From Desulfuromonas sp. (lineage in GTDB: Bacteria; Desulfobacterota; Desulfuromonadia; Desulfuromonadales; Desulfuromonadaceae): DNA of 33,842 nt. The DNA is taken from assembly GCA_028685815.1 (NCBI GenBank), contig JAQUDG010000014.1:1-33842 (forward strand). Reading direction: 5' to 3'. This document shows, in pieces, positions 6,912 to 30,984 of this stretch (positions within the stretch are counted from its first letter, which is position 1; every line of letters begins with the position of its first letter). The notes below the pieces were generated by a model. That model was not told the origin of the DNA, searched no databases, and was given only the letters and a program-made list of their open reading frames with translations. A program made the position numbers and the translations under genes.

Positions 6912-6932
6912 AACTACCTCGTTTCTTTAGTG

Positions 6933-8810: not shown

Positions 8811-8884
8811 GAATACCTCATTTATTTGATGCTAATAACTAAGATAGTAACTTTTCCACCTAGCTCATCTTACCGCTGTATAAA

Positions 8885-9382: not shown

Positions 9383-9819
9383 AGGTCTTCCTCGAATTGG
9401 CGCAGGATGGTCATTTCGTCGAGCTCGTTCATCTCTTTGTGTTTTAGTTCTTGCTCCTGCTCGGCGAGTCTTTTTTCTTTAAGTTTAGCTAGCAGATGTT
9501 TATTCTGACTTGCTGCTCCAAGCTCTTCTCGGCACTCCAGAACAAAATCTTGAGCTTTTTTACGCGCCCACTCTAACTGCATAATGTGATTGCGCTGATG
9601 CTCAATGCGGTTTTCATACAACATAAATTCGTGGCTTAACATTCCCTTGGCTTGGCGCTGCTCATATTCATCGCGCAGCTCTTCTAGTTGCTGTTGCGCT
9701 GATGCATGCTCTGTACTAAGGGCTTCTTCGACCATGCGCGCCTGCGATAGCTTTTGTTGTGCCATATCTTCTAGGCGTTGCCGATGATCTAGCACGACCT
9801 GTAGCTTAAAGGGTTTCAT
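9379..9819 (-). CDS. fliJ: Flagellar export chaperone FliJ
   Basis: FliJ is a coiled-coil stalk protein that sits in the FliI hexamer and contacts FlhA. The 146-residue product is almost wholly alpha-helical and charged, beginning MKPFKLQVVLDHRQRLED and running through heptads such as LEELRDEYEQRQAKG and LEWARKKAQDFVLECREEL. Low sequence conservation is normal for FliJ, so the call rests on length, predicted coiled coil, the FKLQ.VL.HR start and position after fliI. It is separated from fliI by 124 bases without a clear promoter or terminator and overlaps motE by 4 bases. Confidence 0.88.
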   Translation of the reverse strand: MKPFKLQVVLDHRQRLEDMAQQKLSQARMVEEALSTEHASAQQQLEELRDEYEQRQAKGMLSHEFMLYENRIEHQRNHIMQLEWARKKAQDFVLECREELGAASQNKHLLAKLKEKRLAEQEQELKHKEMNELDEMTILRQFEEDL

Positions 9820-9943
9820 GTACTATTCCTCTTAAGATAAAATGAACCTGTGAAAACTATGATGAAATTGGCGGAGAGAACCGATGGTATTAATGTTTAG
9901 GCAAGTCTTCGGAACGGGGAGTGTTGCAAGAAGGAGTCTTGAA

Positions 9944-13003: not shown

Positions 13004-13037
13004 TCATCTACTCCTGTAATAATAAAGCAGGTAAACG

Positions 13038-14612: not shown

Positions 14613-14701
14613 AATTCCACCATTTGCGCACGTGATCTTCTCAACCCTCGGACGTTAGCGCCCAAGGTCAGCCGGCATACCAATAAATTTCATATAACTC
14701 A

Positions 14702-14998
14702 TTATACCTGCATGCGCATTATTTCCTGATATGCATCCAGAGCCTTATTACGCATTTGTACCAGCAATCGCATGGAAATATCAGCCTCTTCCATACTCAG
14801 CATAACTTCATGCAGATTCTCCGCTTTCCCGGTCTGAAGTGCAACGGCGGCTTTGTCTGCATCCAACTGAGCTTGGTTGGTCTGTGACACCGCATCAGCA
14901 AGCATATCTGCAAACCCAGTATTGCTGGCGCTGTTTTGCGGCGCGGAGGTGGGGAACAGACTTTTAAGATGGGTATCAATTGAAATATCTTTTATCAT
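14702..14998 (-). CDS. fliE: Flagellar hook-basal body adaptor FliE
   Basis: FliE joins the MS ring to the proximal rod and is the first axial protein exported. The 98-residue product matches the usual FliE length. It contains FADMLADAVSQTNQAQLDADKAAVALQTGKAENLHEVMLSMEEADISMRLLVQMRNKALDAYQEIMRMQV (cited here as the family signature running from about residue 29 to the end), with the terminal AYQEIMRMQ box. GGGAGG lies about 6 bases before the ATG. It starts 3 bases after flgC, in the canonical flgB-flgC-fliE order. Confidence 0.95.
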   Translation of the reverse strand: MIKDISIDTHLKSLFPTSAPQNSASNTGFADMLADAVSQTNQAQLDADKAAVALQTGKAENLHEVMLSMEEADISMRLLVQMRNKALDAYQEIMRMQV

Positions 14999-15001
14999 CT
15001 T

Positions 15002-15427
15002 TTACCTCCCGATCTCAAGGGCCTTTAAGGCCATACGCTTACTTGCCTTTATGCTGGTTAAGTTCGCCTCATAGGCGCGGGTAGCCATCATCATATCGGC
15101 GGTCTCTTCAAGCAGATTGATATTGGGCATGGCCACATAACCGTTTTCATTTGCATCGGGGTGAGCGGGATCAAAATGCAGGCGGGGTTCTGCCGTATCT
15201 GTCACAATTCGACTCACGCGCACTCCCTGTGCCTGCATGGCACCGTTCAACTGCTGTTTAAAACCAGGCTGCTTGGTCTCAAACACAACCAGCTTACGCT
15301 GATAGGGCCCGCCCTGAGGCGTTCTGGTTGTTTCGATGTTGGCCATATTAGAGCTGATGGTGTCAAGACGGATTCGCTGCGCCTTCAGTGCTGATGAAGC
15401 TATATCAAACGAGTTGAATACATCCAT
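15002..15427 (-). CDS. flgC: Flagellar basal-body rod protein FlgC
   Basis: FlgC is a proximal rod subunit. The 141-residue product starts MDVFNSFDIASSALKAQRIR and continues DTISSNMANIETTRTP, the N-terminal rod signature. It ends NLLEETADMMMATRAYEANL and ASKRMALKALEIG, the C-terminal rod signature. I chose the ATG at 15427 because GGAGG sits about 5 bases before it and it begins at the family-typical MDVF; a longer frame upstream adds 14 unrelated residues. It follows flgB by about 60 bases. Confidence 0.95.
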   Translation of the reverse strand: MDVFNSFDIASSALKAQRIRLDTISSNMANIETTRTPQGGPYQRKLVVFETKQPGFKQQLNGAMQAQGVRVSRIVTDTAEPRLHFDPAHPDANENGYVAMPNINLLEETADMMMATRAYEANLTSIKASKRMALKALEIGR

Positions 15428-15490
15428 AAAAACCTCCGTATAAAAATGTTCCCAGTTTATGCGCAACATCTATTAAGTCTACCGTTTGAT

Positions 15491-15901
15491 TTACTGCCCC
15501 TGAATGGTGTACTTCAAAATGCCCATCTTCTTATTAAGCAGTTGAGTAGCCGCTTCAAAATATATCTGGTTTTTGGCCATCGCTAGCATTTCGCTGTCCA
15601 TATCCACACTGTTACGATCACCCAGCCCACTAGTATCTGGATATTCAACAATCTGGCCATTAACCTTCTCTATGGCTACCCCCTGCCTGGGCATGTGCTG
15701 GGGATGGGTACGGCGTATATTAGAATCGTTGACCGCCACCGCAGCTCTGAGTTGATCTTCAAACTCAAAGCGCTTGGTTGCATAACCAGGAGTTTCCGCG
15801 TTAGCTACATTAGCCGCAATAACCTGTTGATTTTGCATACGTAAATCGAGGCTCTTTTTAAGCACTGCGGTTGTTGAGTCAAATATTCCGATACTACTCA
15901 T
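15491..15901 (-). CDS. flgB: Flagellar basal-body rod protein FlgB
   Basis: FlgB is the first proximal rod subunit. The 136-residue product contains FDSTTAVLKKSLDLRMQNQQ and AANVANAETPGYATKRFEFE, the N-terminal axial signature, and MLAMAKNQIYFEAATQLLNKK near the C-terminus. I chose the ATG at 15901 because GGAGG lies 7 bases upstream; a TTG two codons earlier is only 1 base from that site. It starts 37 bases after the TPR gene in the same direction, so it is probably co-transcribed with it. Confidence 0.94.
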   Translation of the reverse strand: MSSIGIFDSTTAVLKKSLDLRMQNQQVIAANVANAETPGYATKRFEFEDQLRAAVAVNDSNIRRTHPQHMPRQGVAIEKVNGQIVEYPDTSGLGDRNSVDMDSEMLAMAKNQIYFEAATQLLNKKMGILKYTIQGQ

Positions 15902-15938
15902 ATCCAATCCTCCATCTTACAAATTCCGTAGCAATTTC

Positions 15939-18542
15939 TCAATCGAATCGCTCGATTTCCAAGCTCTGCTGTGCTAGGCGTTTCCAGCGCGAGTTTATAT
16001 CAGTTTCGGCAGATTCGGCCACCTGGCTTAGAAATAACCGCCCACGACTGCGCTCGCCCTGCTCGATAAGGATCGAGCCCATGCGATACATAGACGCCAA
16101 ACCATACTCCGATGTATCAACTAAGCGTTGATAATATTCTAGCGCTGCAGCCAATTGTTTTTGCGCATAAAGAGATTCTGCATAAATATAGACATCTTCT
16201 GCCAGCGCGCCACCGTCTACTCCCAGAGCACTACCCTGTGCCTCTATATTTTCTGCTACTATACGCTGAAGTTGTTGCCCTGCGGCAATAATCTCGTTCT
16301 GTCGCCACAGACGCCTAGCAGCGAACCTGTCCAGCGCAGCACCCCGTGGTCGCTTCGGTGTGGACAGTAACGTATCAGCCTCGTTTTCGCGCCCCAATTT
16401 GAGCAAAGCCATGACATAATCGAGGTACACAGATGATGCGTGCATTTCGTCATACCAAATATCACCATCCCTGAATTGCTCTAGATAGCGACGTGCGTAG
16501 GTTACAACGTTGCGGTAATTACCCTGTTCGTACAGGGCCCTAATAAGTGGAGAATATACAGGTTCAAGCTTTTCCACCTGCTTGGTAGCATCCAACACAT
16601 ATTCATAGAGCTTCACCGCCCGCGCATAAAACTCCAACTCACTAAAAACTTTCCCCAAGTTGAGTAGAAACGCATAATTGCGCTGGGTCGACACCAATAT
16701 CTCACGGTGCTGCTCTACCAGAAGCATGGCATCAAAATGTTGTTGTTCTGCTACGAGTTCTTCAATGTACGGTGGCAAAATTTCGGCCAGCAGCGCCTGC
16801 GCGTAGACTCGCAGCGGAGAAATCCGATCTATGGTCAGAAAATGTCTTAACGTAGCTACAGCCTCTTTTGCATGATGTAACAGATGATGCGTAAGTGCCT
16901 GCTTAAACTCAACCTCTGCCCTGCCCGCACGTGTAGGCATCTCGTTGAGCAATGTGGCGTAATCAGATAGGGCCTGCTCACGGCTTTCGATTCTGGGGCT
17001 TACAGCACTCAAATCGGCCAGCTTGAGCTTTGCAAGCTTGGCGGCATAACTGCCAGGCATGATTTTACCGAGCAAATTAAGGGCTGAATCGGTATTTTCG
17101 GCATGCAACATGCTCATGGCAATAAAATACCTGGCCATATCGCGCTGCTCCTGATCTTCAAGCAGATCATGCAGGTGCGAGAAAACTTCTTGCGCTTTCA
17201 GGTACTCCTTACGCGCATACAGAGTACTAGCATACGAACCAAGAGAGTAAGCAAAATCGCCCAACTCCTCAGCTGCATCAAGTTCGGCGTACAATTTCAG
17301 CGCTGCTTCAAAATCCCCGCGCTTATAGAGGGCATCGGCCCGGCGTCTTGTTACGACGCTTCCCATCTCTGACGTTGTCGCATCCAAGGTACCTAGCAAC
17401 TGCAACGCCACCTCGCTGCGTCCAAGGGCCAACTCCGCTTCTGCCTGCAACAACGTCACATATGGCTGCTGCGCCAACGCTGTATGTGCAGCAACGGCCA
17501 ACTCCAGTTCTGCCAACAGGACATGGGGCTGTTCCGCATAGAACTGCCCAGGACTACAAGTACGCAGATAGAGTTCCATCAGGGCTAGGCATTGTTCGAG
17601 TTCCGGAAAATCAAAACCGCCTACATTGCCCTGCCCTGTTACATCCGAAATAGCAGCTTTAATCCGCGCCAAAAAACCGTACGCATTGGAACAGCCCCTT
17701 TCGCGTAGCGCCATCTCGGCCAAAAGCAAATCTCGGGTAACTTTCTCGCGTAGCGAGAGCGAGGTGAACCCTACGCCAGTGTAAGCACTGCGAGCCACAT
17801 CCCAGCGTTCCGCTTCCCCAGCTTCCAGAACCTCCAGCGGGACACACTCGTGCGCAGGTACACACAGCCCGATTAGTGGAAAAGGTGGCAGAGTGTACCC
17901 CAAAGGGATATTCAACTCAACAGCGCGTTCATAGTCGCGAAAAAACTGCTCCCAATGCCCTTGATATTTTGAGGCTATCGCCTTACGACTCACACCCCCA
18001 GTAGTGCTCACGTGTAATCCACCCGGCAGCGATCTGGAAATTGCAGGACGCGAACCACTGTCCTGCTCGCGCCAGTGCACGTCCAGCACAATCTGCTTCC
18101 CCCCATCAAGCTTGTGCGCATTAACAAAGCGCGGGGGGCGGCGTAGTAAAAAAGAAAGCAACAGCCTATCAGTTGCCTCCCCCACGAGAACCCTAGCGAT
18201 AGAATCACTATCTCCGGGAGCAGGCATCTCCTCCCGCACGCGAGTGTCCAGCAATGTTATTTCAAGCTTTTGCCCCGATGTCGCCAGTGTATAAAGCGGG
18301 ACGCGATCAAAACTGAGCACTATCTTGATCATATTAACATCCTGCTCGACCTGCAACTCCTGCAACTCTGCCTGAACTGCAGCATGCGAAAGCTGACAAT
18401 GAAACAGAATGAGGGCAAAGACAAAGCACGTTGCCCCTATTGCCACGATTCGTCTGATAGCCCTTTTTTTTACTGTTCTCGTATGTGACAAAGAGAAAAA
18501 ATTCAACTTTAACAACCTTTTTATTGCCAAAGAATCAAGCAT
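15939..18542 (-). CDS. Large secreted TPR-repeat protein upstream of flgB
   Basis: I do not recognise a named family. The product is about 867 residues. It has a basic segment, one hydrophobic helix and a likely signal-peptidase site after LSHA (near residue 54), so it is probably exported to the envelope. The next 100 residues are beta-rich (MIKIVLSFDRVPLYTL, QKLEITLLDTRV, RLLLSFLLRRPP, KQIVLDVHW), reminiscent of an AMIN-type envelope domain. The rest is helical and tetratricopeptide-like, for example RADALYKRGDFEAALKLYAEL, YARKEYLKAQEVFSHL and ESLYAQKQLAAALEYYQRLV. The start is uncertain: ATG 18542 has a poor ribosome site, and TTG codons such as 18491 would give a more usual signal peptide. 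It ends 37 bases before flgB and lies behind a sigma-54 promoter, so an envelope role in flagellar assembly or placement is plausible but inferred. Confidence 0.72.
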   Translation of the reverse strand: MLDSLAIKRLLKLNFFSLSHTRTVKKRAIRRIVAIGATCFVFALILFHCQLSHAAVQAELQELQVEQDVNMIKIVLSFDRVPLYTLATSGQKLEITLLDTRVREEMPAPGDSDSIARVLVGEATDRLLLSFLLRRPPRFVNAHKLDGGKQIVLDVHWREQDSGSRPAISRSLPGGLHVSTTGGVSRKAIASKYQGHWEQFFRDYERAVELNIPLGYTLPPFPLIGLCVPAHECVPLEVLEAGEAERWDVARSAYTGVGFTSLSLREKVTRDLLLAEMALRERGCSNAYGFLARIKAAISDVTGQGNVGGFDFPELEQCLALMELYLRTCSPGQFYAEQPHVLLAELELAVAAHTALAQQPYVTLLQAEAELALGRSEVALQLLGTLDATTSEMGSVVTRRRADALYKRGDFEAALKLYAELDAAEELGDFAYSLGSYASTLYARKEYLKAQEVFSHLHDLLEDQEQRDMARYFIAMSMLHAENTDSALNLLGKIMPGSYAAKLAKLKLADLSAVSPRIESREQALSDYATLLNEMPTRAGRAEVEFKQALTHHLLHHAKEAVATLRHFLTIDRISPLRVYAQALLAEILPPYIEELVAEQQHFDAMLLVEQHREILVSTQRNYAFLLNLGKVFSELEFYARAVKLYEYVLDATKQVEKLEPVYSPLIRALYEQGNYRNVVTYARRYLEQFRDGDIWYDEMHASSVYLDYVMALLKLGRENEADTLLSTPKRPRGAALDRFAARRLWRQNEIIAAGQQLQRIVAENIEAQGSALGVDGGALAEDVYIYAESLYAQKQLAAALEYYQRLVDTSEYGLASMYRMGSILIEQGERSRGRLFLSQVAESAETDINSRWKRLAQQSLEIERFD

Positions 18543-18779
18543 CTTATAGCTGCTTGCTAAGACATTAGCGCAGTTTTTAATGCAAAACCACAAAGCATAA
18601 TGAATTGCAGATGCACAAACACTCAAGCCTTAAGTGGCGCTATACTAAAGTAACAATCCACGAGAAAAATTCATTTAACTTGTTTACCTGCGCAGCTGAA
18701 AATACAATGAAAATTCGTATATAGCAAACTTCTGTTCAATCTAATTACTCAATTTCTCAGCCTATTCCGTCCACGTACT

Positions 18780-19577: not shown

Positions 19578-21872
19578 ATGACCGACAATTTGAGCAGCGA
19601 TCAGATAGAGATCATAGTTGACTTCGTTCAAGAAAGTCAGGATATGATCGAACAACTCGAACCCACCATCATCGAACTCGGTCAGGATGCTGACCCTGAG
19701 ACTATCAATGCTGTTTTCCGCCTGTTCCACTCCATGAAGGGCAGCGCCGGATTCCTTGAATTTAACCATATTACCAACGTAGCTCATTCGGCTGAAAACC
19801 TGCTCGACAATGTGCGCTCAGGCAAACTAAAACTCCAACCTGAGCATGTAAACCTCTTGTGCGAATCCTGCGATTTCTCCAAAGAAGCGCTGGAACACGT
19901 GTCAGAAACCTATTCTGACCACGCAATGGCAGACAAGGCCGCCGAGATGGTCGAAAAACTCAAAAACATCATGGATCCGGAGTACAAAGTAACCGACGAG
20001 CCCGATGAAGAGCCTTCTGTTGAGTCCGAGGTCGAGACAGAACCAGAGCCGGAACCCCACCATAATACCGCTGCGGTTATAAAAAATGAAGACGAGACTG
20101 ATGATTACACTCTCGACATTACTGATGAAATGGTGGAGCGCTACATCCAAGAAGCAGAAGAACTCCTTGAAGGTGCCGAGGGAGGGTTACTTGAGTGGGA
20201 GAGTGCTCCGGACAACACCGAGACCTTAAATCTTGTTTTCCGCAACATCCATAGTTTCAAGGGAAACAGCGGTTTTTTTGGCTACGCGAACCTTGAACAA
20301 CTCAGCCATAACATCGAAAACGTGCTCGACAATATCAAAAATGGTGGCTCTTTCAGGGTCGAGAATCCTTTCGAGATTCTTCTTAGTGCCATTGATGCCC
20401 TCAAAGACTGCGTAAGCAACCTTGCTAGCCACGGTGGCAAAGACCACATCGAAGGGTTGGAACACCACGTAGAGGCGCTACAGGAGCTCCCATCTCCTCG
20501 CCTAGGTGAACTTCTAGTGAAGCAGGGCCTCATCAAGGAAGAAGATGTGGAATCGGTCCTCTCAATTCAGCAGAAACCGCTGGGGGAACACCTGATACAG
20601 ATGGGCAAGGTCTCACATGAACAAATAGCCGAAAGTGTGAAGCTCCAGCATTCTGAAAAAAAAACTATTAAACCGCCGGAGCGTAAACCAACCAAAGCCA
20701 CTACACCGACTAAACGCCAAGATATCCGCGTTGACCTTACAAAGCTCGATAGCCTGATAAACCTTATCGGTGAAATGGTGATCGCTGAAAACATGCTGAT
20801 TCATAACCCTGATATAGAGGGAATGGAGCTTGAAAACTTCAACAAAGCAGCTCAGCAGATGACCAAACTGGTGCGCGAACTCCAAGAGATGGCCATGGTT
20901 ATCCGCATGATTCCGATCTCGGGATTGTTTCGCCGCATGATCCGCCTCGTACACGATATATCAGCCAAAGCAGGCAAAAAAGTTGACCTGAAACTTTTTG
21001 GCGAAGGAACCGAGGTAGATAAAACTGTTATTGAAACCATCACTGACCCCTTAGTGCACCTACTGCGGAACTCCATGGACCATGGACTAGAGCCGCCTAA
21101 AGAGCGCGTGGAGACAGGCAAAAGCGAAACCGGAATCCTCAAACTTTCCGCGTGCCATGAGGAAGGCGAAGTATGGATAACCATCGAAGATGACGGGCGC
21201 GGGCTTAATCGAGAAAAAATTCTGTCGAAAGCGATCCAAAATGGCATGATTGAGGGCGATGGCTCAGACCTACCAGACAAATATGTGTACAACCTCATAT
21301 TCCAGCCTGGATTTTCTACTGCTGATAAAATCACCGACATTTCAGGTCGTGGTGTAGGGATGGACGTAGTCAAGCAGAATTTGGAGAAGATTAAAGGCAA
21401 GATCGACGTCACCAGCGCCCCCGGCAAGGGAACCATCGTGAAACTGCGAATTCCCCTGACCCTGGCCATAATAGATGGGATGCTGGTTCGGGTCGGCGAC
21501 GTCAACTGCATTGTGCCAGTACTGGCAATACGGGAAGCATTCCGTCCTCAAGCTGACAACATCACCATCACCCCTGACAACGAGGAGCTGGTGCGGGTGC
21601 GTGAAGCGTTCCTGCCGGTGGTCAAACTCCACGAACTTCTTAGCGTAGAACCTGACAGTCGCGAGCTGATAGAGGGTATCTTGATCGTACTTGAACATCA
21701 GGACCGCTTTGTTTGCCTACAGGTCGATGAAATCATGGGACAGCAGCAGACCGTTATTAAAGGTCTGTCGGAATATATCGGCAGTGTCAACGGCTGCTCC
21801 GGTTGCACAATTCTCGGCAATGGCGATATCTGCCTGATTCTGGATGTTGGCGGTCTCGTTGAAAGACAGTAA
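19578..21872 (+). CDS. cheA: Chemotaxis histidine kinase CheA with two HPt domains and a MshEN-like insert
   Basis: CheA autophosphorylates and passes phosphate to CheY and CheB. The 764-residue product has a first HPt domain (LFHSMKGSAGFLEF, His51), an acidic linker, and a second HPt domain (NIHSFKGNSGFFGY, His225). Then come two tandem 24-residue motifs at 308-331 and 334-357 (RLGELLVKQG... and PLGEHLIQMG...) that resemble the MshE/type II secretion ATPase N-terminal (MshEN) c-di-GMP motif. The dimerisation domain follows (about 384-460), then the HATPase domain (N box LLRNSMDHGLE, EDDGRG, GRGVGMDVV) and a CheW-like coupling domain to the end. I see no clear P2 CheY-binding domain. The ATG has only a weak AAGAG site. 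It leads the cheARBD run, with cheR starting 19 bases on. Confidence 0.95.
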   Translation: MTDNLSSDQIEIIVDFVQESQDMIEQLEPTIIELGQDADPETINAVFRLFHSMKGSAGFLEFNHITNVAHSAENLLDNVRSGKLKLQPEHVNLLCESCDFSKEALEHVSETYSDHAMADKAAEMVEKLKNIMDPEYKVTDEPDEEPSVESEVETEPEPEPHHNTAAVIKNEDETDDYTLDITDEMVERYIQEAEELLEGAEGGLLEWESAPDNTETLNLVFRNIHSFKGNSGFFGYANLEQLSHNIENVLDNIKNGGSFRVENPFEILLSAIDALKDCVSNLASHGGKDHIEGLEHHVEALQELPSPRLGELLVKQGLIKEEDVESVLSIQQKPLGEHLIQMGKVSHEQIAESVKLQHSEKKTIKPPERKPTKATTPTKRQDIRVDLTKLDSLINLIGEMVIAENMLIHNPDIEGMELENFNKAAQQMTKLVRELQEMAMVIRMIPISGLFRRMIRLVHDISAKAGKKVDLKLFGEGTEVDKTVIETITDPLVHLLRNSMDHGLEPPKERVETGKSETGILKLSACHEEGEVWITIEDDGRGLNREKILSKAIQNGMIEGDGSDLPDKYVYNLIFQPGFSTADKITDISGRGVGMDVVKQNLEKIKGKIDVTSAPGKGTIVKLRIPLTLAIIDGMLVRVGDVNCIVPVLAIREAFRPQADNITITPDNEELVRVREAFLPVVKLHELLSVEPDSRELIEGILIVLEHQDRFVCLQVDEIMGQQQTVIKGLSEYIGSVNGCSGCTILGNGDICLILDVGGLVERQ

Positions 21873-21890
21873 CTTCGGGGTACCTTAGAT

Positions 21891-22760
21891 ATGAAAGCTG
21901 ATCTTCGCGGCTCTGCCATAGCCAGCGGTAGCATGATGAGCATCAGCGACAGTGAGTTCGACTCTCTGCGCGAGATGATATATACCCGCTTCGGCATCAA
22001 CCTGACAGAGCAGAAGCGTTCTCTACTGGTGGGTCGATTGCAGAAAATGCTGCGCACCCACAAGATAGAAACCTTTGAGGATTACTACCGCTATCTGGAG
22101 AAAGACACCAGTGGCAAAGCGGTAAGTGACCTCATCAACCTGATCTCCACCAACTACACCTATTTCAACCGCGAAAAGGATCACTTCGACTACTTTTTAA
22201 ACACAGCTTTGCCCCATGTATGTGAAGAAATAAAAAAGCGAGGGGAAAAAAACCTACGCGTCTGGTGCGCCGGTTGCTCCAGCGGTGAAGAGGCGTACAC
22301 CCTGCAGATGCTCATGCATGAGTACCTTGGCCCTGAATACAGTCGCTGGGATGCCGGTCTATTGGCAACGGACATTTCGCAGCGCGTGCTCGATACCGCA
22401 CTTGAAGGGATTTATCCGGCAGACAAGGTTGCATCTCTGCCGGAAAATCTGCAGCGCAAGTACTTTACCCGCCTCCCCTCTGGACAGATGCAGGTAAACA
22501 GCAAAATACGTTCACAAGTTACATTCAGGCGCTTCAACCTTATGAACACTAAGTTCCCGTTCAAGCGCCCGTTTCATATAATCTTCTGCCGGAATGTAAT
22601 GATCTATTTTGATCTGGCCACCCGCAATGCGTTAGTGCAAAGGTTTCATCAATTCCTGGAACCCAAAGGGTATTTCTTTATTGGACATTCTGAAACACTC
22701 GGGCGCGACAGCAAACTGTATAACTATATCTTACCCGCAGTGTACCAAAAGGGGAGCTAA
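21891..22760 (+). CDS. cheR: Chemoreceptor glutamate methyltransferase CheR
   Basis: CheR transfers methyl groups from S-adenosylmethionine to receptor glutamates for adaptation. The 289-residue product has an N-terminal helical domain (FDSLREMIYTRFGINLTEQK, LVGRLQKMLR) and a C-terminal SAM-binding domain with RVWCAGCSSGEEAYTL, ATDIS, and FHIIFCRNVMIYFD, ending GYFFIGHSETL. All the usual motifs are intact. A later in-frame ATG could serve as start, since the first 15-18 residues are not family-typical. It lies 19 bases after cheA and 6 before cheB. Confidence 0.95.
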   Translation: MKADLRGSAIASGSMMSISDSEFDSLREMIYTRFGINLTEQKRSLLVGRLQKMLRTHKIETFEDYYRYLEKDTSGKAVSDLINLISTNYTYFNREKDHFDYFLNTALPHVCEEIKKRGEKNLRVWCAGCSSGEEAYTLQMLMHEYLGPEYSRWDAGLLATDISQRVLDTALEGIYPADKVASLPENLQRKYFTRLPSGQMQVNSKIRSQVTFRRFNLMNTKFPFKRPFHIIFCRNVMIYFDLATRNALVQRFHQFLEPKGYFFIGHSETLGRDSKLYNYILPAVYQKGS

Positions 22761-22766
22761 CCATCT

Positions 22767-23822
22767 ATGTCCAGAAAAATTCGTGTCCTCGTAATTGACG
22801 ACTCTGCCCTCATCCGCCAGATCCTCACCCAAGGTCTTTCTCTAGATCCGGAGATTGAGGTGGTTGGGTCTGCTATCGATCCGTATATTGCACGCGATAA
22901 AATCATCCAACTGCGTCCCGATGTCCTCACTCTAGACGTAGAGATGCCGCGCATGGATGGGGTAGAATTTCTGCGCAAGCTGATGCCGCAGTACCCCCTC
23001 CCCGTGGTTATGGTTAGCTCTCTGACCCAGCGCGGCAAACAGATAACCATGGAAGCCCTAGAGGCAGGTGCGGTGGATTTTGTATCCAAGCCCACCAGCA
23101 ATGTCGCCCACGGGATGAACAGCATGCTCAGCGAATTGCGCAAGAAGGTTAAAAATGCAGCAGGTGCCAATGTCTCTCACTGGAAAAATAGAACTCCGTT
23201 GCAGCCAAACGCGCAAACCCTCCTGACAACAAGAGCTCTAGCCGAATCCACCGACAAGGTGATTGCCATCGGAGCCTCCACCGGGGGAACCGAAGCGATA
23301 AAGAAGGTGGTGTGTCAGTTCCCCGCCACCATGCCAGGAGTGGTGATTGTTCAGCACATGCCGCCAGGTTTCACCAAAATGTTTTCTGAGCGTCTAAATC
23401 AGCTCTGCGCTATGGAAGTCAAGGAAGCTGAGACCGGAGACCGTATCCGCAGTGGCAGAATTCTGGTTGCTCCGGGGGCAAAACAGCTTGAGGTTGTGCG
23501 ATCGGGCGGAGTGTACCAGGTACGCTGTGAACCGGGCGAGAAGGTAAGTGGTCACTGCCCATCGGTAGATGTTATGATGCACTCGGTGGCTAAACACGTT
23601 GGAGCCAATGCCATCGGTGTCATGCTCACCGGTATGGGTTCAGACGGCGCCGATGGGATGTTGGCCATGAAAAATGCCGGAGCACGCAACATGGCCCAGG
23701 ATGAGGCCAGCTGTGTAGTTTTTGGTATGCCCAAGGTAGCCTTCGAGAGAGGGGGAGCGGAAAAACTGGTTCCTCTGGATAAAATCGCCCCAAAAGTCAT
23801 TTCCATGTTAACGGAGAAATAA
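22767..23822 (+). CDS. cheB: Chemotaxis methylesterase/deamidase CheB
   Basis: CheB removes methyl groups from receptors (or deamidates them) when phosphorylated by CheA. The 351-residue product has an N-terminal receiver with Asp11, Asp12 and phospho-acceptor Asp57, then a linker and a C-terminal esterase domain. The catalytic triad is visible as Ser171 (GASTGGTEAI), His197 (VQHMPPGF) and Asp293 (GMGSDGADGM). Together with cheR and cheD it gives a full adaptation set, although no receptor gene lies in this window. GGGGAG lies upstream within the cheR end. Confidence 0.96.
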   Translation: MSRKIRVLVIDDSALIRQILTQGLSLDPEIEVVGSAIDPYIARDKIIQLRPDVLTLDVEMPRMDGVEFLRKLMPQYPLPVVMVSSLTQRGKQITMEALEAGAVDFVSKPTSNVAHGMNSMLSELRKKVKNAAGANVSHWKNRTPLQPNAQTLLTTRALAESTDKVIAIGASTGGTEAIKKVVCQFPATMPGVVIVQHMPPGFTKMFSERLNQLCAMEVKEAETGDRIRSGRILVAPGAKQLEVVRSGGVYQVRCEPGEKVSGHCPSVDVMMHSVAKHVGANAIGVMLTGMGSDGADGMLAMKNAGARNMAQDEASCVVFGMPKVAFERGGAEKLVPLDKIAPKVISMLTEK

Positions 23823-23828
23823 AAGACC

Positions 23829-24317
23829 ATGGGCAATATTATCCTCGGGGTGGGTGAACTTGGCGCCACCAACAACCCCGCTGACTGTGTCAAAACCTTT
23901 GCACTTGGATCATGCGTGGCGGTGATACTCATGTGTCCAAAAACCCGCACTGTCGGCATGGTTCACGTCGCGTTACCAGAATCTAGGATTAATCCAGAAA
24001 AAGTTAAAACCAGGCCAGGATACTTTGCCGACACTGGCATCCCCGCGCTACTGAAAAAAATGTCCACCTTCGGGTGTGACCCAAACGGCAGGGGTTTTAT
24101 TGTAAAACTGGCTGGTGGCGCCAGAATCATGGACCCAAACAACACCTTCAATATCGGCAAACGCAATGCATTAGCTGTTAAAAAAACCCTATGGAAGTTT
24201 TCCCTCGGGGCTGTTGCAGAGGATTTGGGAGAAACATACAGCAGAACAGTTACCGTCTCCGTGGCATCAGGTGAAACCCTGATAACCTCGCCAGGACGCA
24301 AGGACTGGAAGATTTAA
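23829..24317 (+). CDS. cheD: Chemoreceptor glutamine deamidase CheD
   Basis: CheD deamidates receptor glutamines and, in CheC/CheX systems, is regulated by binding to a CheC-type phosphatase. The 162-residue product has the catalytic cysteine in FALGSCVAV (Cys29), histidine in GMVHVALP (His46) and a threonine at position 23, matching the Cys-His-Thr arrangement of the family. It starts 6 bases after cheB with GGAG about 12 bases upstream. Its presence next to five CheX/CheC-like domains makes a CheD-phosphatase link worth considering, but CheX itself is not known to bind CheD. Confidence 0.95.
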   Translation: MGNIILGVGELGATNNPADCVKTFALGSCVAVILMCPKTRTVGMVHVALPESRINPEKVKTRPGYFADTGIPALLKKMSTFGCDPNGRGFIVKLAGGARIMDPNNTFNIGKRNALAVKKTLWKFSLGAVAEDLGETYSRTVTVSVASGETLITSPGRKDWKI

Positions 24318-24333
24318 ACTAATGGAGAAGACC

Positions 24334-25212
24334 ATGGAACAACGTGCTACGCGCGCTGACATTCTCGCGGCAATAAAAGAGATTCCTCTGCTCTCTCCCA
24401 GTGCCTCGCGTCTGCTTCAGATAGCCTCTAGAGACGACTACAATATTGACGAAATAATTGAGGTAGTCAAATGCGACTCAGCTCTGACCGCCCGCTTGCT
24501 TAAAACAGTCAATTCAGTAGCTTACGGCTTGGTACATCAAGTGACCAGTATCGAGCGTGCAGTTAGCTACCTGGGTGAACGTCTTGTTGCCGGCATTGCT
24601 CTTGAAGACAGCGCGAAAGCGGTGTTTAACAAAAAACTCGAAGGCTACGAAAGCCCCGTTGGCGAGTTATGGGAGCATGATTTGCGCACTGCCGTAGCGG
24701 CGCGCGAAATAGCCCGCCATTCCAATACAGACCTTAGCAAGGATCTGGCCTTTACCGCAGGCATTCTACACGCCATAGGCAAAGCAGTCCTCAGTGATTT
24801 TCTGCACGAATCCGCCCCAGACCTGCTGGCCAATATAGACAGTCACGATATTAGAGACTACCTTGAGGGGGAGCGGAAGATACTGGGGATGGATCATGCC
24901 GAAGCCGGCTTTGAGCTTGCTAAAGCTTGGGAGCTGCCCGAGTCGCTACAAATGGCTATACGCCATCACCACACACCGCAGCAGGCTCCAGAACAATACC
25001 GGCCCTTGGTATACGCAGTCCATCTTGGATGTATTATAGCCATGATGTCAGGCAGTCAATCTTCAGATGCTCTGCAATATCACCTCGACAAAGATTATAG
25101 CGATTATTTTAATATCACCAATGAACACATTGCCATGATATTGCTTGAAGTGAATGAAAGTGTAGAAACGATCCAGGCTGCACTTACTGAAGGCAGGGAG
25201 CAAGCAGAATGA
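24334..25212 (+). CDS. HDOD domain protein
   Basis: HDOD domains are HD-like folds, usually lacking enzyme residues, found in signalling proteins. The 292-residue product has the HDOD core throughout: IKEIPLLSPSASRLLQIA near the start, IIEVVKCDSALTARLLKTVNS, SIERAVSYLGERLV and AFTAGILHAIGKAVLSDFL. I chose ATG 24334 because GGAG sits 6 bases upstream; an ATG at 24322 has no good site. It lies in the chemotaxis operon after cheD and its stop overlaps the following receiver gene by 4 bases (ATGA), indicating tight coupling with that receiver. Its function in chemotaxis is unknown. Confidence 0.9.
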   Translation: MEQRATRADILAAIKEIPLLSPSASRLLQIASRDDYNIDEIIEVVKCDSALTARLLKTVNSVAYGLVHQVTSIERAVSYLGERLVAGIALEDSAKAVFNKKLEGYESPVGELWEHDLRTAVAAREIARHSNTDLSKDLAFTAGILHAIGKAVLSDFLHESAPDLLANIDSHDIRDYLEGERKILGMDHAEAGFELAKAWELPESLQMAIRHHHTPQQAPEQYRPLVYAVHLGCIIAMMSGSQSSDALQYHLDKDYSDYFNITNEHIAMILLEVNESVETIQAALTEGREQAE

Positions 25213-25583
25213 AGCGTATCATAATAGCCGATGACTCGGGTACAGCGCGCATGATGATAAGGCGCTGCCTTGAAATTATAGGTTTTAATGAAACTATATT
25301 TGAAGAGGCGAAAGACGGGCGTGAAGCCCTAGCCTTGATGAAGAAAAATCCGCCCGACCTTTTAGTCAGCGACCTTAACATGCCAAGCATGGATGGGGAA
25401 ACCCTGCTGCAATGGGTCAAGGCCAGCCCCAAACTGGTCAACATTCCGGTCTTGATAATATCCAGCGTCACCAACCCGGCTAAAACCGCCGAACTTAAGA
25501 AAAAAGGTGCTTTTGCAGTTATCGGCAAGCCAATAAATCCGGCACTGCTCAATGAGGCTCTTGCCCCGCTCTTACCGGAATAG
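25209..25583 (+). CDS. Stand-alone receiver (CheY-like) protein coupled to the HDOD gene
   Basis: The 124-residue product is a single receiver domain with Asp8/Asp9, phospho-acceptor Asp55 (LLVSDLNMPSMDG) and the C-terminal lysine in VIGKPINPALLNEAL. Its sequence differs from the second stand-alone receiver in this cluster (26129-26500), especially after the lysine. The gene overlaps the HDOD gene by 4 bases and is followed 13 bases later by a CheX-like gene. A likely reading is a phosphate sink, or a signal output read by the HDOD protein or removed by the CheX protein, but this is inference. Confidence 0.9.
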   Translation: MKRIIIADDSGTARMMIRRCLEIIGFNETIFEEAKDGREALALMKKNPPDLLVSDLNMPSMDGETLLQWVKASPKLVNIPVLIISSVTNPAKTAELKKKGAFAVIGKPINPALLNEALAPLLPE

Positions 25584-25596
25584 AAAGGCTATCACC

Positions 25597-26088
25597 ATGG
25601 CTAAACTCCAAAAACTGCTGGCCGCAACACTCGCGAAAGTAATCGACGAGACGCTAGAGAACATGGCCTTTATTAGCACAGAAGAGGTGGACACCGAACA
25701 AGCGCCTCTTGAGCTTGAGAACATGCGCGCAGTGTGCCTCTTGATAACTGCACCCGTAGTGATGGAGATTCGCCTAGGTATGGCAGAAGAACTGCTGCAC
25801 CAAATAGTCGAAACCATGTACACCATTGACGCTGATGATATCACGCAGGAGCAGATTGCTGATGTCCTAGCAGAAACCCTCAATACCCTGGCCGGATGCC
25901 TTATGACTGAATTGCTCCCAGCAGACCAGGCTTTTTCTTTAAGCCTACCGGAAGCAGTAACAGATGACCTGAGCACTGCGGACGACAACACCATCTTTGC
26001 GACACAGTACATGGCCGATGACTTACCCATAAGTGTCAAAATAAGCGCCGCTGCTACAGAAGAGCTTGAAAAGATACTCAAAATCTGA
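25597..26088 (+). CDS. CheX-like phosphatase (first copy, divergent)
   Basis: The 163-residue protein fits the CheX/CheC-like fold in length and has an ExxN motif at Glu93-Asn96 inside LAETLNTLAGCLMTELL, the type used by CheX to remove phosphate from CheY. It also has the trailing strand QYMADDLPISVKISAA. Outside this motif it differs strongly from the other two small CheX-like genes. I chose ATG 25597 because it follows AAAGG; a longer frame would overlap the receiver gene. It sits between two receivers, so either could be its substrate. Confidence 0.72.
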   Translation: MAKLQKLLAATLAKVIDETLENMAFISTEEVDTEQAPLELENMRAVCLLITAPVVMEIRLGMAEELLHQIVETMYTIDADDITQEQIADVLAETLNTLAGCLMTELLPADQAFSLSLPEAVTDDLSTADDNTIFATQYMADDLPISVKISAAATEELEKILKI

Positions 26089-26128
26089 GCAACATATCCA
26101 TTTAACCTGCTATCACAAGGAGAATCCC

Positions 26129-26500
26129 ATGGGCAAGCGTGTATTAATCATAGATGATTCCAGCACTATGCGAAAAATTGTATCCCGTTCACTACGTCAG
26201 GCCGGACTGGACTTTGACGAAATTCTGGAAGCAGCTGACGGGCAGGAAGCCCTTGACCTGCTGAAAACAGAAAAGGTTGATCTAATCCTCAGTGATATAA
26301 ATATGCCCAATATGGACGGGATGGAGTTTTTACGTCAAAAAAGGGAGATCGACGCCATTAAAGATATCCCCGTGGTGATGATAACAACCGAAGGTGGAGC
26401 TGACATTATTGGCGAAGCAAAAGAACTCGGTGCAGCTGGTAGCGTGAAGAAACCGTTTAAGCCAGAAACCATCAGTGATGTACTTGGCGCGTTGATTTAA
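26129..26500 (+). CDS. cheY: Chemotaxis response regulator CheY
   Basis: CheY-P binds FliM to change motor rotation. The 123-residue product has all the key residues: Asp9/Asp10, phospho-acceptor Asp56 (LILSDINMPNMDGMEFL), the Thr pair in VVMITTEGG and Lys108 in VKKPFKPE. It is closer to canonical CheY than the other stand-alone receiver. AAGGAG lies 7 bases before the ATG at 26129; a longer frame upstream overlaps the previous gene and is rejected. About 100 bases without an obvious terminator separate it from the next CheX gene. Confidence 0.92.
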   Translation: MGKRVLIIDDSSTMRKIVSRSLRQAGLDFDEILEAADGQEALDLLKTEKVDLILSDINMPNMDGMEFLRQKREIDAIKDIPVVMITTEGGADIIGEAKELGAAGSVKKPFKPETISDVLGALI

Positions 26501-26599: not shown

Positions 26600-27055
26600 G
26601 TGGAACTACAAAAACACATTACCGATGCAACAACTGAAATATTTGAAACTATGATTATGTTGGAGATCTCCGCCGGCGATCCCGTGGTAGAGAAAATAAA
26701 TAATTTTAAATGTTCAGTTTCTGGCGTTATTGGCTTAGCCGGCACCTGCAAGGGAATACTTGCCATCCACCTGCCCGATAAGGTCGCCATGTCCATTACC
26801 GGCAGCTTTCTGGGAATGGAAGTAACTGAAGTGGATGACGATGTAACTGATGCCATTGGTGAGCTAGCCAACATGGTGGCGGGCAACATAAAAATGATAC
26901 TGGATGAAGCGGGAAAAGACGTAACCCTCTCCATCCCTTCCTGCGTACATGGGGCTGAATACACTTTGGACACCGCCGCAGACTGCGAACGGGTGGTAGT
27001 TCCTTTTAACCTCGAAAGCGGCCAGTTTCTCGTGGAACTCCAGGTAAAAAACTAA
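26600..27055 (+). CDS. CheX-like phosphatase (second copy)
   Basis: The 151-residue product matches CheX well: EIFETMIMLEI near the start, GVIGLAGTCKGILAIHLPD, then DAIGELANMVAGNIKMIL with the ExxN residues Glu88 and Asn91, and the C-terminal strand FLVELQVK. CheX dephosphorylates CheY-P. The start is a GTG at 26600 with AGGAG about 8 bases upstream. It shares clear sequence similarity with the next gene (27136-27603), which points to a local duplication. Confidence 0.9.
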   Translation: MELQKHITDATTEIFETMIMLEISAGDPVVEKINNFKCSVSGVIGLAGTCKGILAIHLPDKVAMSITGSFLGMEVTEVDDDVTDAIGELANMVAGNIKMILDEAGKDVTLSIPSCVHGAEYTLDTAADCERVVVPFNLESGQFLVELQVKN

Positions 27056-27135: not shown

Positions 27136-27603
27136 TTGGAAAACAACCTACAGCAACAGATTATCAATGCCACCCAGGCGGTATTCGATACCATGTTGAT
27201 GTTGCCCGTGACATCCGGAGTGGCACTCCCGGATAAAGTGTACCTTTTCAATGACAGCATATCCGGAATGTTGGGTTTTTCCGGAGACGTGCAGGGGATG
27301 CTGACTATTCACTGCCCGCAGCAAATAGCCTTTTGCATTACCGGACAACTTCTAGGGATGGAAGTCGACGGTATGGATGAGGATGTTAAGGACACTATAG
27401 GCGAAATGGCCAACATGATCCTGGGAGGCATTAAAGATGCGTTCCTCGAACGGGGAACAGACATCAGTCTGGCTGTCCCCACCGTCATGTCTGGACGCTC
27501 ATATCGAGTTAAAACAGTGGATTACGCCTCATGGACTACCGTTCCATTCTATCTTGACGATGGCGAATTTCTAGTTGAATTAAAACTCAAAACCTTGGAC
27601 TAG
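27136..27603 (+). CDS. CheX-like phosphatase (third copy)
   Basis: The 155-residue product parallels its upstream neighbour across the whole length: AVFDTMLMLPVT, GMLGFSGDVQGMLTIHCP, DTIGEMANMILGGIKDAFL with ExxN residues Glu90 and Asn93, and FLVELKLKTL at the end. The start is a TTG at 27136 with AGGAG about 7 bases upstream; no ATG lies nearby without cutting the first helix. The pair probably arose by tandem duplication and may now act on different receivers. Confidence 0.88.
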   Translation: MENNLQQQIINATQAVFDTMLMLPVTSGVALPDKVYLFNDSISGMLGFSGDVQGMLTIHCPQQIAFCITGQLLGMEVDGMDEDVKDTIGEMANMILGGIKDAFLERGTDISLAVPTVMSGRSYRVKTVDYASWTTVPFYLDDGEFLVELKLKTLD

Positions 27604-27614: not shown

Positions 27615-29522
27615 GTGGCAGATAAAGCAGTCGTTGATCGTGTCTTCAACGCCATTATCGAACAAACATCTGAAGAAGTTGGCGCTTTGCTCGACGCCAA
27701 TATTGTACTTGACGAGCACCAGACCAAGCTGCTGAACAAGAACCAGATTTTTGAAATAAAACGCAGCCGCTCCATCCTAAGCACCATGAAAATCAGTGGA
27801 GACCAAGAAGGTAATGCCTTTATAATTACCGCCCAAAAAGACTCCATCACTCTAGGAGGCACACTGATCATGCTGCCTCCCGATCAAATCGAAGAAAACC
27901 AGAAACAACGCATATTTGGAGGTGAAGCGGCAGACGCCTTTGGAGAAGTGGCTAACATTATTGCCGGCGTATACACCTCTGTATTTTTGGAGATGTATCC
28001 AAAAAAACTCCATTTTAAGCGTACTGATGTAAACGAGTTTATCCCGACCAAACTTGACCCAGAAGCCGACCTCCCCTTCCCTCCTGGGGTATACTTTTAC
28101 TCCAGCTGTTCAGTAAAACTTGAGAACCGGAGCTTGGAAAAGCTGGAGGTAATTGTTCCGGCACATATCTTTGGGTTGGCCCCACCACCCGAAACAGCGG
28201 AAACGGTCCAGCTGGAAGGCGCAACAACAAAAGAAGAGGACGATGCAGAAGAGATTGTAGCTGCCCCCCCTAGTAGCAGTCCTCCGAGTGCAGAGGCTAC
28301 TCCAGTTACCGAGAAGGGTCCCCAAGAACCAGAAGCTGAACCAGAAGCTGAAGAAACAAACTATATCGAACTGTCCGTAGTCGATCGAGTCCTCAAGGCC
28401 GCCATTACCCAGTGCGCCGAAGAGATCGGCACCATACTAGACATCGAAATAGAGTTAAGCACCATGAGCACCGGTTATGTTTCCAAGGAGGAGTACTTTG
28501 CTAGGCCCGGGCCTAAGTCTACCGTAACTGAAATGGAAGTAAGTGGAGATCGTGCGGGGATCTCCTACTTCATTGCCGACCTTAAAGATTCCATTTATTT
28601 TGGCGGTACCTTGGTGATGTTGCCCGAGGATGAACTCTCAAGCAGAATGACGTCCGGTGAGCTTGATGGTGAAATAGAGGATGCTTTTGGCGAAGTTGCC
28701 AACATAATCAGCGGCGGGATCGTACAGAATTTTGCTGAAATGTTCCCCCGCAAGTTTCATGTAAAAAAAGGCAACGTTGAAGCTTTTACCCCCACCAAGG
28801 TAATGATAGAAAGCCCCAAACCATTTCCAGACGCAGAATATTATAGCGTAAGTGTCAGCATGGACTGCGATACTCACGATCTGGGGCACTTAACCTACCT
28901 TGTTCCGGTAGAGTTGCTGCATCTCCCCCCAAGACCAGAACAAACTAGTTGGGGAGCATCCGCAGGTGACGAAACAACACAAAAACCGCAGACCCTTGAA
29001 ACCCCAGGCAAACCACAGAGCGGCGCTGCAAGCAAAGAAAAGACCACGCTAGAATCCGCTACTACATCAGAAAAGACTACGCCGGGGAACTCCTCAGCTC
29101 AGACCCATACTTCTAAGAGCGCAGATGCTAAAACAGCGCCCAACGAAGAAGCCAAAGAAGAGGTCGTAGCCGTTGTGTACCAAGACATCTCTGCCGCAGA
29201 GCCATATACCGTGATTCTTGGAGAATTTGGGCATAAACCGGTGCCACTGGCAGCGCACGAAAGCTTCAACTCCCTACGCCAAAATAGAGTATGTGGATCC
29301 CTGCTGATCCTCAGCAAAATTGACGACGACGCCTTTGCCCTCATAATAAAGATTCGCTCCGAAACTCCAGCAAGCCAGCCACTTATAGTCGCCGGATCAG
29401 CCTGGACTCGAAGTGCAGTGTTAAAAGCCGTCAGATACGGAGTTAATGACATCATCCCAACTCCAGCCTCTGACGATGAAATCCGTGCCAAGTTACAGCA
29501 CAATCTGAAAAATTCTTGCTAA
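27615..29522 (+). CDS. Dual CheX-like protein with C-terminal pseudo-receiver
   Basis: I know no named family with this layout. The 635-residue product has two similar units of about 185 residues. Each begins VVDRVxxAAI/FNAI...EE(I/V)G and carries AFGEVANII, giving ExxN pairs at Glu111-Asn114 and Glu360-Asn363, as in CheX/CheC. The units are joined by an acidic Pro/Glu-rich linker (about 190-250). A Thr/Ser/Lys-rich linker (about 440-525) leads to a receiver-like fold (531-635: YTVILGEFG, SLLILSKI, PLIVAG, AVRYGVNDIIPTPAS) that lacks the acidic pair and a clear phospho-acceptor Asp. The start is a GTG with a weak site. It sits 11 bases after the third CheX gene and before a sigma-54 activator that also has a pseudo-receiver. 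Confidence 0.8.
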   Translation: MADKAVVDRVFNAIIEQTSEEVGALLDANIVLDEHQTKLLNKNQIFEIKRSRSILSTMKISGDQEGNAFIITAQKDSITLGGTLIMLPPDQIEENQKQRIFGGEAADAFGEVANIIAGVYTSVFLEMYPKKLHFKRTDVNEFIPTKLDPEADLPFPPGVYFYSSCSVKLENRSLEKLEVIVPAHIFGLAPPPETAETVQLEGATTKEEDDAEEIVAAPPSSSPPSAEATPVTEKGPQEPEAEPEAEETNYIELSVVDRVLKAAITQCAEEIGTILDIEIELSTMSTGYVSKEEYFARPGPKSTVTEMEVSGDRAGISYFIADLKDSIYFGGTLVMLPEDELSSRMTSGELDGEIEDAFGEVANIISGGIVQNFAEMFPRKFHVKKGNVEAFTPTKVMIESPKPFPDAEYYSVSVSMDCDTHDLGHLTYLVPVELLHLPPRPEQTSWGASAGDETTQKPQTLETPGKPQSGAASKEKTTLESATTSEKTTPGNSSAQTHTSKSADAKTAPNEEAKEEVVAVVYQDISAAEPYTVILGEFGHKPVPLAAHESFNSLRQNRVCGSLLILSKIDDDAFALIIKIRSETPASQPLIVAGSAWTRSAVLKAVRYGVNDIIPTPASDDEIRAKLQHNLKNSC

Positions 29523-29604: not shown

Positions 29605-30984
29605 TTGGCTGAATCTGTTCTGCTGAATATCAATAATGTTATTGAGCCTCAGTTGCTTGAGTTTTTAACTCAACAGCTTGGCGGCGCATTGCATCTAGCG
29701 CAGACTGCCGAACAAGCCCGCGATATTATACGCCGCCGCACAATAAAACTTTTCCTGTGCTCCCTTGGGGTAAACACACTCGAATACGCAGCTTTGCTTA
29801 AAGCGGTAAAAACCATATCGCCTGATACAGTTATCATCCTCATCGTGCCACAATCCTCCCAGGCCCCCATCAACGAGATCCTGCAAATCGGGGCACATTT
29901 TTATCTGCATGTGCCATGCAACAACGCCGAAGCTGCCGAAATCATTCAACGAGCTGAACTACATTGCAAAACCCTTAGGGCCACTAATCCTGAAAACCAG
30001 AGACCAGTAATCGATTTCCCAGGAATTATTGGCAAGAACCCGATGATGCAGCAGCTCTTTAATACAATCCGACTCCTAGCAGATGACAGCGACAGCACCA
30101 TTCTGATTCATGGCGATAGTGGCACCGGCAAAGAATTGGTTGCGCGGGCAGTACACAGCAACAGTCCTAGAAAACATAACAACTTCGTCCCCATCAACTG
30201 TGCGGCTATCCCTGAAGAACTCCTAGAAAGTGAACTATTCGGACATGTAAAAGGTTCTTTTACCGGTGCCACCGCTAACAAAAAAGGCCGACTACACCAC
30301 GCAGATGGGGGAACTTTATTTTTGGACGAAATTGGAGATATGAAACCACTGCTCCAAGCCAAAATTTTGCGCGTAATCCAGGAAAAAGAGTTTGAACCTG
30401 TAGGGAGTGTAAAAAGTGTAAAAATAGACGTCAGAATTGTTGCGGCCACCCATCGCAATCTAGAAGAGGCCATAAAAGATGGAACGTTCCGCGAAGATCT
30501 CTATTACCGCCTCAACGTTGTTCCGTTACATATTCCCGCACTGCATCAGCGTCGTGATGATATCGCTCTCTTGCTAGACACCTTTACCGAACGCTTTTGT
30601 CACAGCAAAAAAAGACCGGTGTTCAGCTTTGCCCAAAGTACTATAGAGTGCTTGCAGCAATATCCTTGGCCAGGAAACGTCAGAGAACTCGAAAATCTGG
30701 TACAACGTTTGTCCATTCTGCACACCGGTAAAATCGTATTCCCCGATGATCTACCGGAAAAATATCTGCACTCATCCAGCGACACTACACTTAACCCAGA
30801 CAGCAAAAATGGCAAAACGGATTTCAACATTCAAGTGAGTGAATTCGAGGATCGCCTTATATTACAGGCTCTTATGAAGACCGGCGGCAACAAAAAAGAA
30901 GCCGCACAACTGCTGAACCTCAAACGCACGACCTTGCTAGAAAAAATCAAGAAAAAGCGCCTTGGCAAGAGCCATAACAAATAA
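29605..30984 (+). CDS. Sigma-54-dependent activator with degenerate receiver
   Basis: The 459-residue protein is a bacterial enhancer-binding protein. Its N-terminal 120 residues have a receiver-like pattern but lack the Asp pair and have Ser53 around the expected phospho-acceptor (KLFLCSLG), so phosphorylation is unlikely. The AAA+ domain has Walker A GDSGTGKE (170-177), GSFTGA (217-222) for sigma-54 contact, Walker B LFLDEIGD and arginine-finger FREDLYYRLNV. A Fis-type helix-turn-helix ends the protein (NKKEAAQLLNLKRTTLLEKI). The start is a TTG at 29605 with a poor ribosome site. Position and the sigma-54 promoter at 18780-18795 suggest a flagellar regulator, but the target is inferred. Confidence 0.88.
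   Translation: MAESVLLNINNVIEPQLLEFLTQQLGGALHLAQTAEQARDIIRRRTIKLFLCSLGVNTLEYAALLKAVKTISPDTVIILIVPQSSQAPINEILQIGAHFYLHVPCNNAEAAEIIQRAELHCKTLRATNPENQRPVIDFPGIIGKNPMMQQLFNTIRLLADDSDSTILIHGDSGTGKELVARAVHSNSPRKHNNFVPINCAAIPEELLESELFGHVKGSFTGATANKKGRLHHADGGTLFLDEIGDMKPLLQAKILRVIQEKEFEPVGSVKSVKIDVRIVAATHRNLEEAIKDGTFREDLYYRLNVVPLHIPALHQRRDDIALLLDTFTERFCHSKKRPVFSFAQSTIECLQQYPWPGNVRELENLVQRLSILHTGKIVFPDDLPEKYLHSSSDTTLNPDSKNGKTDFNIQVSEFEDRLILQALMKTGGNKKEAAQLLNLKRTTLLEKIKKKRLGKSHNK

What the first reader, a model, noticed from the sequence alone, without database searches (positions are those of the whole stretch)
27615..29522. Dual CheX-like protein fused to a pseudo-receiver
Two tandem CheX-like units, an acidic linker, a Thr/Ser-rich linker, then a receiver-like fold without phospho-acceptor residues. 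CheX normally works as a dimer, so a covalent tandem could be a built-in dimer. A non-phosphorylatable receiver could compete with real receivers or anchor the protein. I know no characterised protein with this layout.
Basis: partly seen in the sequence, partly recalled or inferred. Interest (0 to 1): 0.72.

Follow-up and report, generated by a model that had tools for sequence, protein, structure and literature searches.

The report
Tandem CheX phosphatase with pseudo-receiver tail
This gene encodes a flagellum-linked protein in which two enzyme units that should switch off the swimming signal are joined to a 'dead' signal-receiver domain; it occurs in nearly every flagellated relative sampled, and its doubled enzyme part appears to have arisen several times over, which suggests a dedicated, unstudied motor-side control protein.

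Summary
ORF 27615-29522 encodes two CheX-like units, each with an intact D-x3-E-x2-N active-site motif, two low-complexity linkers and a C-terminal receiver fold that has lost its phospho-acceptor Asp, T87 and Lys.

It is a conserved family, not an oddity. The pseudo-receiver profile finds one copy in 139 of 194 genomes of the class, matching presence of FliG in 190 of 194 (phi 0.95). In other orders of the class it is a single-CheX protein in cheY-cheX-THIS-TPR-flgBC-fliEFGHI. In the window's order it ends the flagellar che operon beside a sigma-54 activator. One origin of the tandem is rejected (p-AU 2e-11): the CheX unit was duplicated several times, or homogenised after duplication.

No receiver in the family keeps the Asp. 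The most conserved part is helix alpha4 with an invariant W-T. Two nearly complete genomes lost the partner cheY and cheX yet keep the protein; in one, both catalytic Asn are gone while the pseudo-receiver stays intact.

Best reading: a CheY-P phosphatase with a built-in dimer, docked at the flagellum by a phosphorylation-independent receiver, working like FliY without a FliN domain. Activity and docking partner are inferred.

The parts
27615..29522 (+). Tandem CheX-like / pseudo-receiver protein, 635 aa, GTG start
   Evidence: homologues
27615..28178 (+). CheX-like unit 1, residues 1-188
   Evidence: Pfam PF13690; profile vs CheX E 4.3e-9; alignment A2
27945..27956 (+). E111-x-x-N114 active-site motif of unit 1
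   Evidence: invariant columns; motif list
28179..28364 (+). Acidic, Pro-rich linker, residues 189-250
   Evidence: sequence; poorly aligned in relatives
28365..28934 (+). CheX-like unit 2, residues 251-440
   Evidence: Pfam best stretch 347-375; profile vs CheX E 3.7e-7 and vs unit 1 100%
28692..28703 (+). E360-x-x-N363 active-site motif of unit 2
   Evidence: invariant columns; motif list
28935..29159 (+). Thr/Ser-rich linker, residues 441-515
   Evidence: sequence
29160..29510 (+). Pseudo-receiver domain, residues 516-632; no Asp57, Thr87 or Lys109
29403..29411 (+). W597-T598-R599 after beta4, start of helix alpha4; W and T invariant, R nearly so
25552..26088 (+). CheX-like protein (CheX0) in the same operon, motif AETLN intact
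26066..26500 (+). CheY, complete receiver; presumed substrate
26600..27055 (+). Canonical CheX (CheX1)
   Evidence: E 3.7e-26
27136..27603 (+). Canonical CheX (CheX2)
   Evidence: E 2.2e-22
29605..30984 (+). Sigma-54 activator next door, itself with a degenerate receiver
19578..25583 (+). cheA-cheR-cheB-cheD-HDOD-receiver, first part of the same operon
195..18626 (-). Divergent flagellar operon: TPR-like, flgB, flgC, fliE to fliN, fliO, motA, motB

Best explanation
The protein is a flagellum-associated CheY-P phosphatase. Each CheX-like unit carries the Glu/Asn pair that CheX, CheC and FliY use to hydrolyse CheY-P. Two units in one chain replace the homodimer that a single-unit protein would form. 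Flexible linkers join them to a pseudo-receiver that cannot be phosphorylated; it keeps the receiver fold and a strongly conserved alpha4 face and so acts as a fixed docking domain. It would hold the phosphatase at the flagellar motor or basal body and create a local CheY-P sink, as the FliN domain does for FliY. Shown here: architecture, both motifs, loss of the phospho-site across the family, strict link to flagella, gene neighbours, non-single history of the tandem, survival of the protein without cheY/cheX. Inferred: phosphatase activity, intramolecular pairing, identity of the docking partner.
For: D-x3-ExxN kept in every unit of 58 of 59 homologues (the 59th, L048, lost only the leading Asp and keeps ExxN), and invariant in A2. 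Encoded with CheY and CheX in the loci read, apart from two decayed ones. Presence matches FliG in 190 of 194 genomes, Fisher p 2e-42 before any correction for relatedness. In 24 fetched loci of other orders it sits in cheY-cheX-THIS-flgB..fliI, nearly always with a ~700-aa TPR-like gene between. Pseudo-receiver: Asp57 absent in 62 of 62, beta5 Lys lost in all 35 of the own order but kept in 17 of 24 of the others, alpha4 the most conserved element (mean entropy 1.06 bits; 1.5-2.9 elsewhere), unlike CheYs where alpha1, beta1 and beta3 are most conserved. All unit-1 copies as one clade rejected, p-AU 2e-11. G049 and G252 lack orthologous cheY and cheX but keep the protein; in G252 both Asn are lost while the WTR region is intact. 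The same phylum has CheX-CheX-FliN and CheX-FliN proteins, an independent tandem CheX on a motor-docking domain (FliN part read by eye).
Against: No activity or binding data. AlphaFold models were unusable (pLDDT 36 and 43), so the built-in dimer is untested. The operon already has three other CheX-like proteins, so a further phosphatase looks redundant. Retention without CheY shows a role beyond CheY-P hydrolysis. The pseudo-receiver could equally dock on CheA, receptors or a pole protein.
Confidence: 0.5

Rival explanations
1. The pseudo-receiver is an intramolecular pseudo-substrate: it occupies the CheX active sites and is displaced by CheY-P or another signal, so it regulates the phosphatase rather than localising it.
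For: Receiver and CheX are natural binding partners (established knowledge); long flexible linkers allow it; the pseudo-receiver never occurs without a CheX unit in the loci read.
Against: Phosphatase contact in CheY centres on the active-site face, which is the eroded part here, while alpha4 is the conserved part. In G252 the CheX motifs decayed but the receiver did not.
Confidence: 0.15
2. The protein regulates the neighbouring sigma-54 activator, its pseudo-receiver standing in for the degenerate or missing receiver of that activator and coupling flagellar gene expression to CheY state.
For: Within 260 bp of an NtrC-type gene in nearly all loci listed for the window's order and family f39 (one without a recognised one, L100); that activator has a degenerate receiver in the window's family and is short (335-395 aa), apparently receiver-less, in others; the adjacency persists in G049 and G252 after loss of cheY/cheX.
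Against: In 24 loci of other orders the activator is not adjacent, yet the protein tracks flagella just as strictly.
Confidence: 0.15
3. The protein is a scaffold or assembly factor of the flagellum; the CheX motifs are kept mainly for fold or CheY binding, not for catalysis.
For: Persists in two flagellated genomes without the partner cheY/cheX (fli genes in L118).
Against: The Glu/Asn pair is kept wherever CheY is next door, which is hard to explain without catalysis; decay in G252 goes with loss of CheY.
Confidence: 0.15

Closest known systems
CheX (PF13690), Thermotoga/Borrelia type
   Same: Family match, one D-x3-ExxN motif per unit, encoded with CheY
   Different: CheX is a stand-alone ~155-aa homodimer; here two ~190-aa units are in one chain with a pseudo-receiver, and canonical CheX genes lie beside it
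FliY (CheC-like domain plus FliN, C-ring phosphatase)
   Same: Phosphatase domain with a C-terminal docking domain and a flagellar locus; NCBIfam weakly matches FliY models in some relatives
   Different: No FliMN_C domain; the docking domain is a pseudo-receiver; FliM and FliN are separate genes here
CheX-CheX-FliN protein of the same phylum (L153)
   Same: Tandem CheX plus C-terminal adaptor
   Different: Canonical CheX units and a FliN-like adaptor; not homologous over its C-terminus
Pseudo-receivers (PleD second receiver, FrzS-type and other atypical receivers)
   Same: Receiver fold without phospho-site; NCBIfam aligns this domain to PleD 142-274
   Different: None known to me is fused to CheX; this family has its own invariant W-T just after the Thr87 position
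Flagellar che cluster of Desulfuromonas AOP6/2873T (PMC8235581)
   Same: Very likely the same operon: 11 locus tags, with cheC, cheD, cheX, upstream of flagellar genes
   Different: Described only at cluster level; this protein's architecture was not described in the passages read

Membership tests
CheX (PF13690) | Profile match above curated cut-off | tested here: met
   31.9 vs 27 bits, 2 stretches; profile-profile 96.0% and 92.9%
CheX (PF13690) | Active-site ExxN helix | tested here: met
   Invariant in both units
CheX (PF13690) | CheX fold and dimer | tested here: inconclusive
   AlphaFold model pLDDT 36
CheX (PF13690) | CheY-P phosphatase activity | not testable with these tools
   Needs biochemistry
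Receiver (fold) | Sequence-profile relation to receivers | tested here: met
   CheY E 5.5e-6; 22 of 29 relatives match Response_reg, window copy alone does not
Phosphorylatable response regulator | Asp57, Thr/Ser87, Lys109 | tested here: not met
   No Asp57 in 62 of 62; Thr87 and Lys109 replaced in all 35 of the own order
FliY | C-terminal FliN (FliMN_C) domain | tested here: not met
   No FliMN_C match
CheC | Two ExxN motifs in one ~200-aa domain | tested here: not met
   One D-x3-ExxN motif per unit

The most novel reading that the evidence does not exclude
A previously unrecognised core accessory protein of the flagellum in this bacterial class: a pseudo-receiver serves as its motor-docking module, giving a FliY-equivalent built from different parts, and the phosphatase half has been turned into a covalent dimer several times independently.
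Probability: 0.4. Interest if true: 0.72.

Novelty: new variant of a known kind. Interest (0 to 1): 0.55.

Why it matters
Where CheY-P is destroyed (at the motor or at the receptor array) shapes chemotactic signalling. A protein that appears to pair CheX units covalently and to dock them with a dead receiver gives a clean system to test localised dephosphorylation, to test what pseudo-receivers do, and to study repeated evolution of a covalent dimer. It is nearly universal in the flagellated members of its class (the nearest named record is a Geobacteraceae MAG), and I found no description of it.

Tried and rejected
AlphaFold: the tandem with two sequences (pLDDT 36.3) and the receiver alone (42.9) gave unusable models. 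Viral contigs held no relative; genome contigs gave one (L031, whose reading frame breaks inside the pseudo-receiver). The weak pseudo-receiver hits in L119-L122 are a kinase, NtrC regulators and a CheY. A single ancestral tandem was rejected in its simple form; gene conversion between units in several lineages is not excluded. 'Pseudo-receiver as decoy for real receivers' was set aside because the protein survives loss of the neighbouring CheY. Locus tags recalled for Geobacter sulfurreducens found no paper and are not used.

Full report
Observation. The ORF at 27615-29522 is real and the described layout is right. Each of two ~190-aa units carries D-A-F-G-E-V-A-N, the ExxN helix of CheX/CheC/FliY phosphatases. 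Between and after them lie two low-complexity linkers. The C-terminal ~117 residues are a receiver by profile comparison: the family profile hits CheY and other response regulators in the PDB with E down to 5.5e-6, and profile-profile comparison with the neighbouring CheYs gives 96.5%, while unrelated pairings give below 1%. The window copy alone does not match Pfam Response_reg, but 22 of 29 relatives do.

Pseudo-receiver. In 62 family members the Asp57 column never holds Asp (two hold Glu), while all 48 neighbouring CheYs do. Thr87 is Gly or Ala in all but one (Ser). The beta5 Lys is lost in all 35 of the window's order but still present in 17 of 24 members of other orders, so the erosion looks stepwise: Asp first, Lys later. 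Helix alpha4 with its preceding loop, carrying an invariant Trp-Thr (usually Trp-Thr-Arg), is the most conserved element (1.06 bits), whereas in real CheYs alpha1, beta1 and beta3 are the most conserved. In CheY the alpha4-beta5-alpha5 face is the partner-binding face (established knowledge), so a fixed docking role fits.

Family and neighbours. The pseudo-receiver profile finds one copy in 139 of 194 genomes of the class. FliG, sought in what appear to be the same 194 genomes, is present in 141. Comparing the two lists by hand, 138 have both, 52 neither, 1 only the protein, 3 only FliG; the four exceptions are fragmented assemblies (Fisher p 2e-42, phi 0.95; not corrected for relatedness). 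In other orders of the class the homologues are single-unit (334-393 aa) and the fetched loci read cheY-cheX-THIS-TPR-flgB-flgC-fliE-fliF-fliG-fliH-fliI, with small differences in what was recognised. In the window's order the protein closes the operon cheA-R-B-D-HDOD-receiver-CheX-CheY-CheX-CheX-THIS, which in the window is divergent from the flagellar operon that begins with a TPR-like gene and flgB, and lies beside a sigma-54 activator. Outside the class it is rare: three genomes of one family (dual form, also beside TPR-flgB) and one distant single form in a cheX-THIS-cheY cluster. Taxon names are not given by the tool; L031, from a 'Geobacteraceae bacterium' MAG, is the nearest named record.

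History of the tandem. In a tree of all units, unit 1 and unit 2 of families f5, f8, f15 and f19 pair within their own family. Holding all unit-1 copies together costs 79 log-likelihood units (p-AU 2e-11), and starred branches force at least 3 label changes. Either the unit was duplicated several times or the two units were homogenised in several ancestors; the branch lengths between units argue against recent conversion. One reverse event is visible: in G049 the single-unit protein begins as unit 1 and continues as unit 2 of its dual-form relative L036 (crossover near residue 30).

Natural experiments. G049 (99% complete) has FliG but no ortholog of the flagellar cheY, cheX or cheA; G252 (100%) lacks cheY and cheX orthologs and has fli genes. 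Both keep this protein. In G252 both catalytic Asn are replaced (N to K, N to D) while the pseudo-receiver's WTR region is intact. In the loci with an adjacent CheY the Glu/Asn pair is kept. This ties the CheX motifs to CheY, and the protein plus its pseudo-receiver to the flagellum. Two cases only.

Parallel designs. The same phylum contains CheX-CheX-FliN (L153) and CheX-FliN (L156), the FliN parts being read by eye, and a related CheX-like unit followed by a region that reads by eye as a CBS pair (L165, L167). A phosphatase carrying an interchangeable C-terminal adaptor, with a tandem CheX arising again in L153, is therefore a recurrent design. This supports reading the pseudo-receiver as an adaptor.

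Mechanism. Most likely a CheY-P phosphatase with an intramolecular dimer, held at the flagellar motor by the pseudo-receiver. Catalysis, pairing and docking partner are inference. Rivals: intramolecular pseudo-substrate; regulator of the sigma-54 activator; scaffold role.

Known or new. The domains are known; the combination, its near-perfect link with flagella and its repeated tandem form were not found described. The Desulfuromonas cluster was noted as unique but not analysed at protein level in the passages read (PMC8235581). Tran et al. 2008 (PMC2577667) list one cheX per Geobacter genome and do not, in the passages read, mention such a protein. Many subscription papers, including the main CheC/CheX review, were not held.

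Noticed in passing
25552-29522: One operon encodes five CheX-like domains (CheX0, CheX1, CheX2, two units of this protein), all with an intact ExxN motif, against two stand-alone receivers.
   Followed up: partly
29605-30984: The neighbouring sigma-54 activator has a degenerate receiver; in several relatives it is short (335-395 aa) and apparently receiver-less, which recalls FleQ/FlrA-type flagellar regulators (from memory).
   Followed up: partly
15939-18626: TPR-like protein at the head of the divergent flagellar operon; its counterpart sits directly after the CheX/pseudo-receiver gene in other orders of the class. Role unknown.
   Followed up: partly
L153:888-2495: CheX-CheX-FliN-like protein of 535 aa: tandem CheX on a C-ring-type domain.
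   Followed up: partly
L165:7283-8455 and L167:7020-8183: CheX-like unit followed by what looks by eye like a CBS pair, between cheY and a CheA gene; the neighbouring CheX has an N-terminal extension that may be a degenerate receiver.
   Followed up: no
L117:3526-5280, L118:5035-6972: CheA-like proteins with Hpt and HATPase domains but no CheW domain found, upstream of this protein in family f39.
   Followed up: no
31495-31965 and 32643-33623: By eye, an integrase/transposase fragment and a REP-type transposase downstream of the operon.
   Followed up: no
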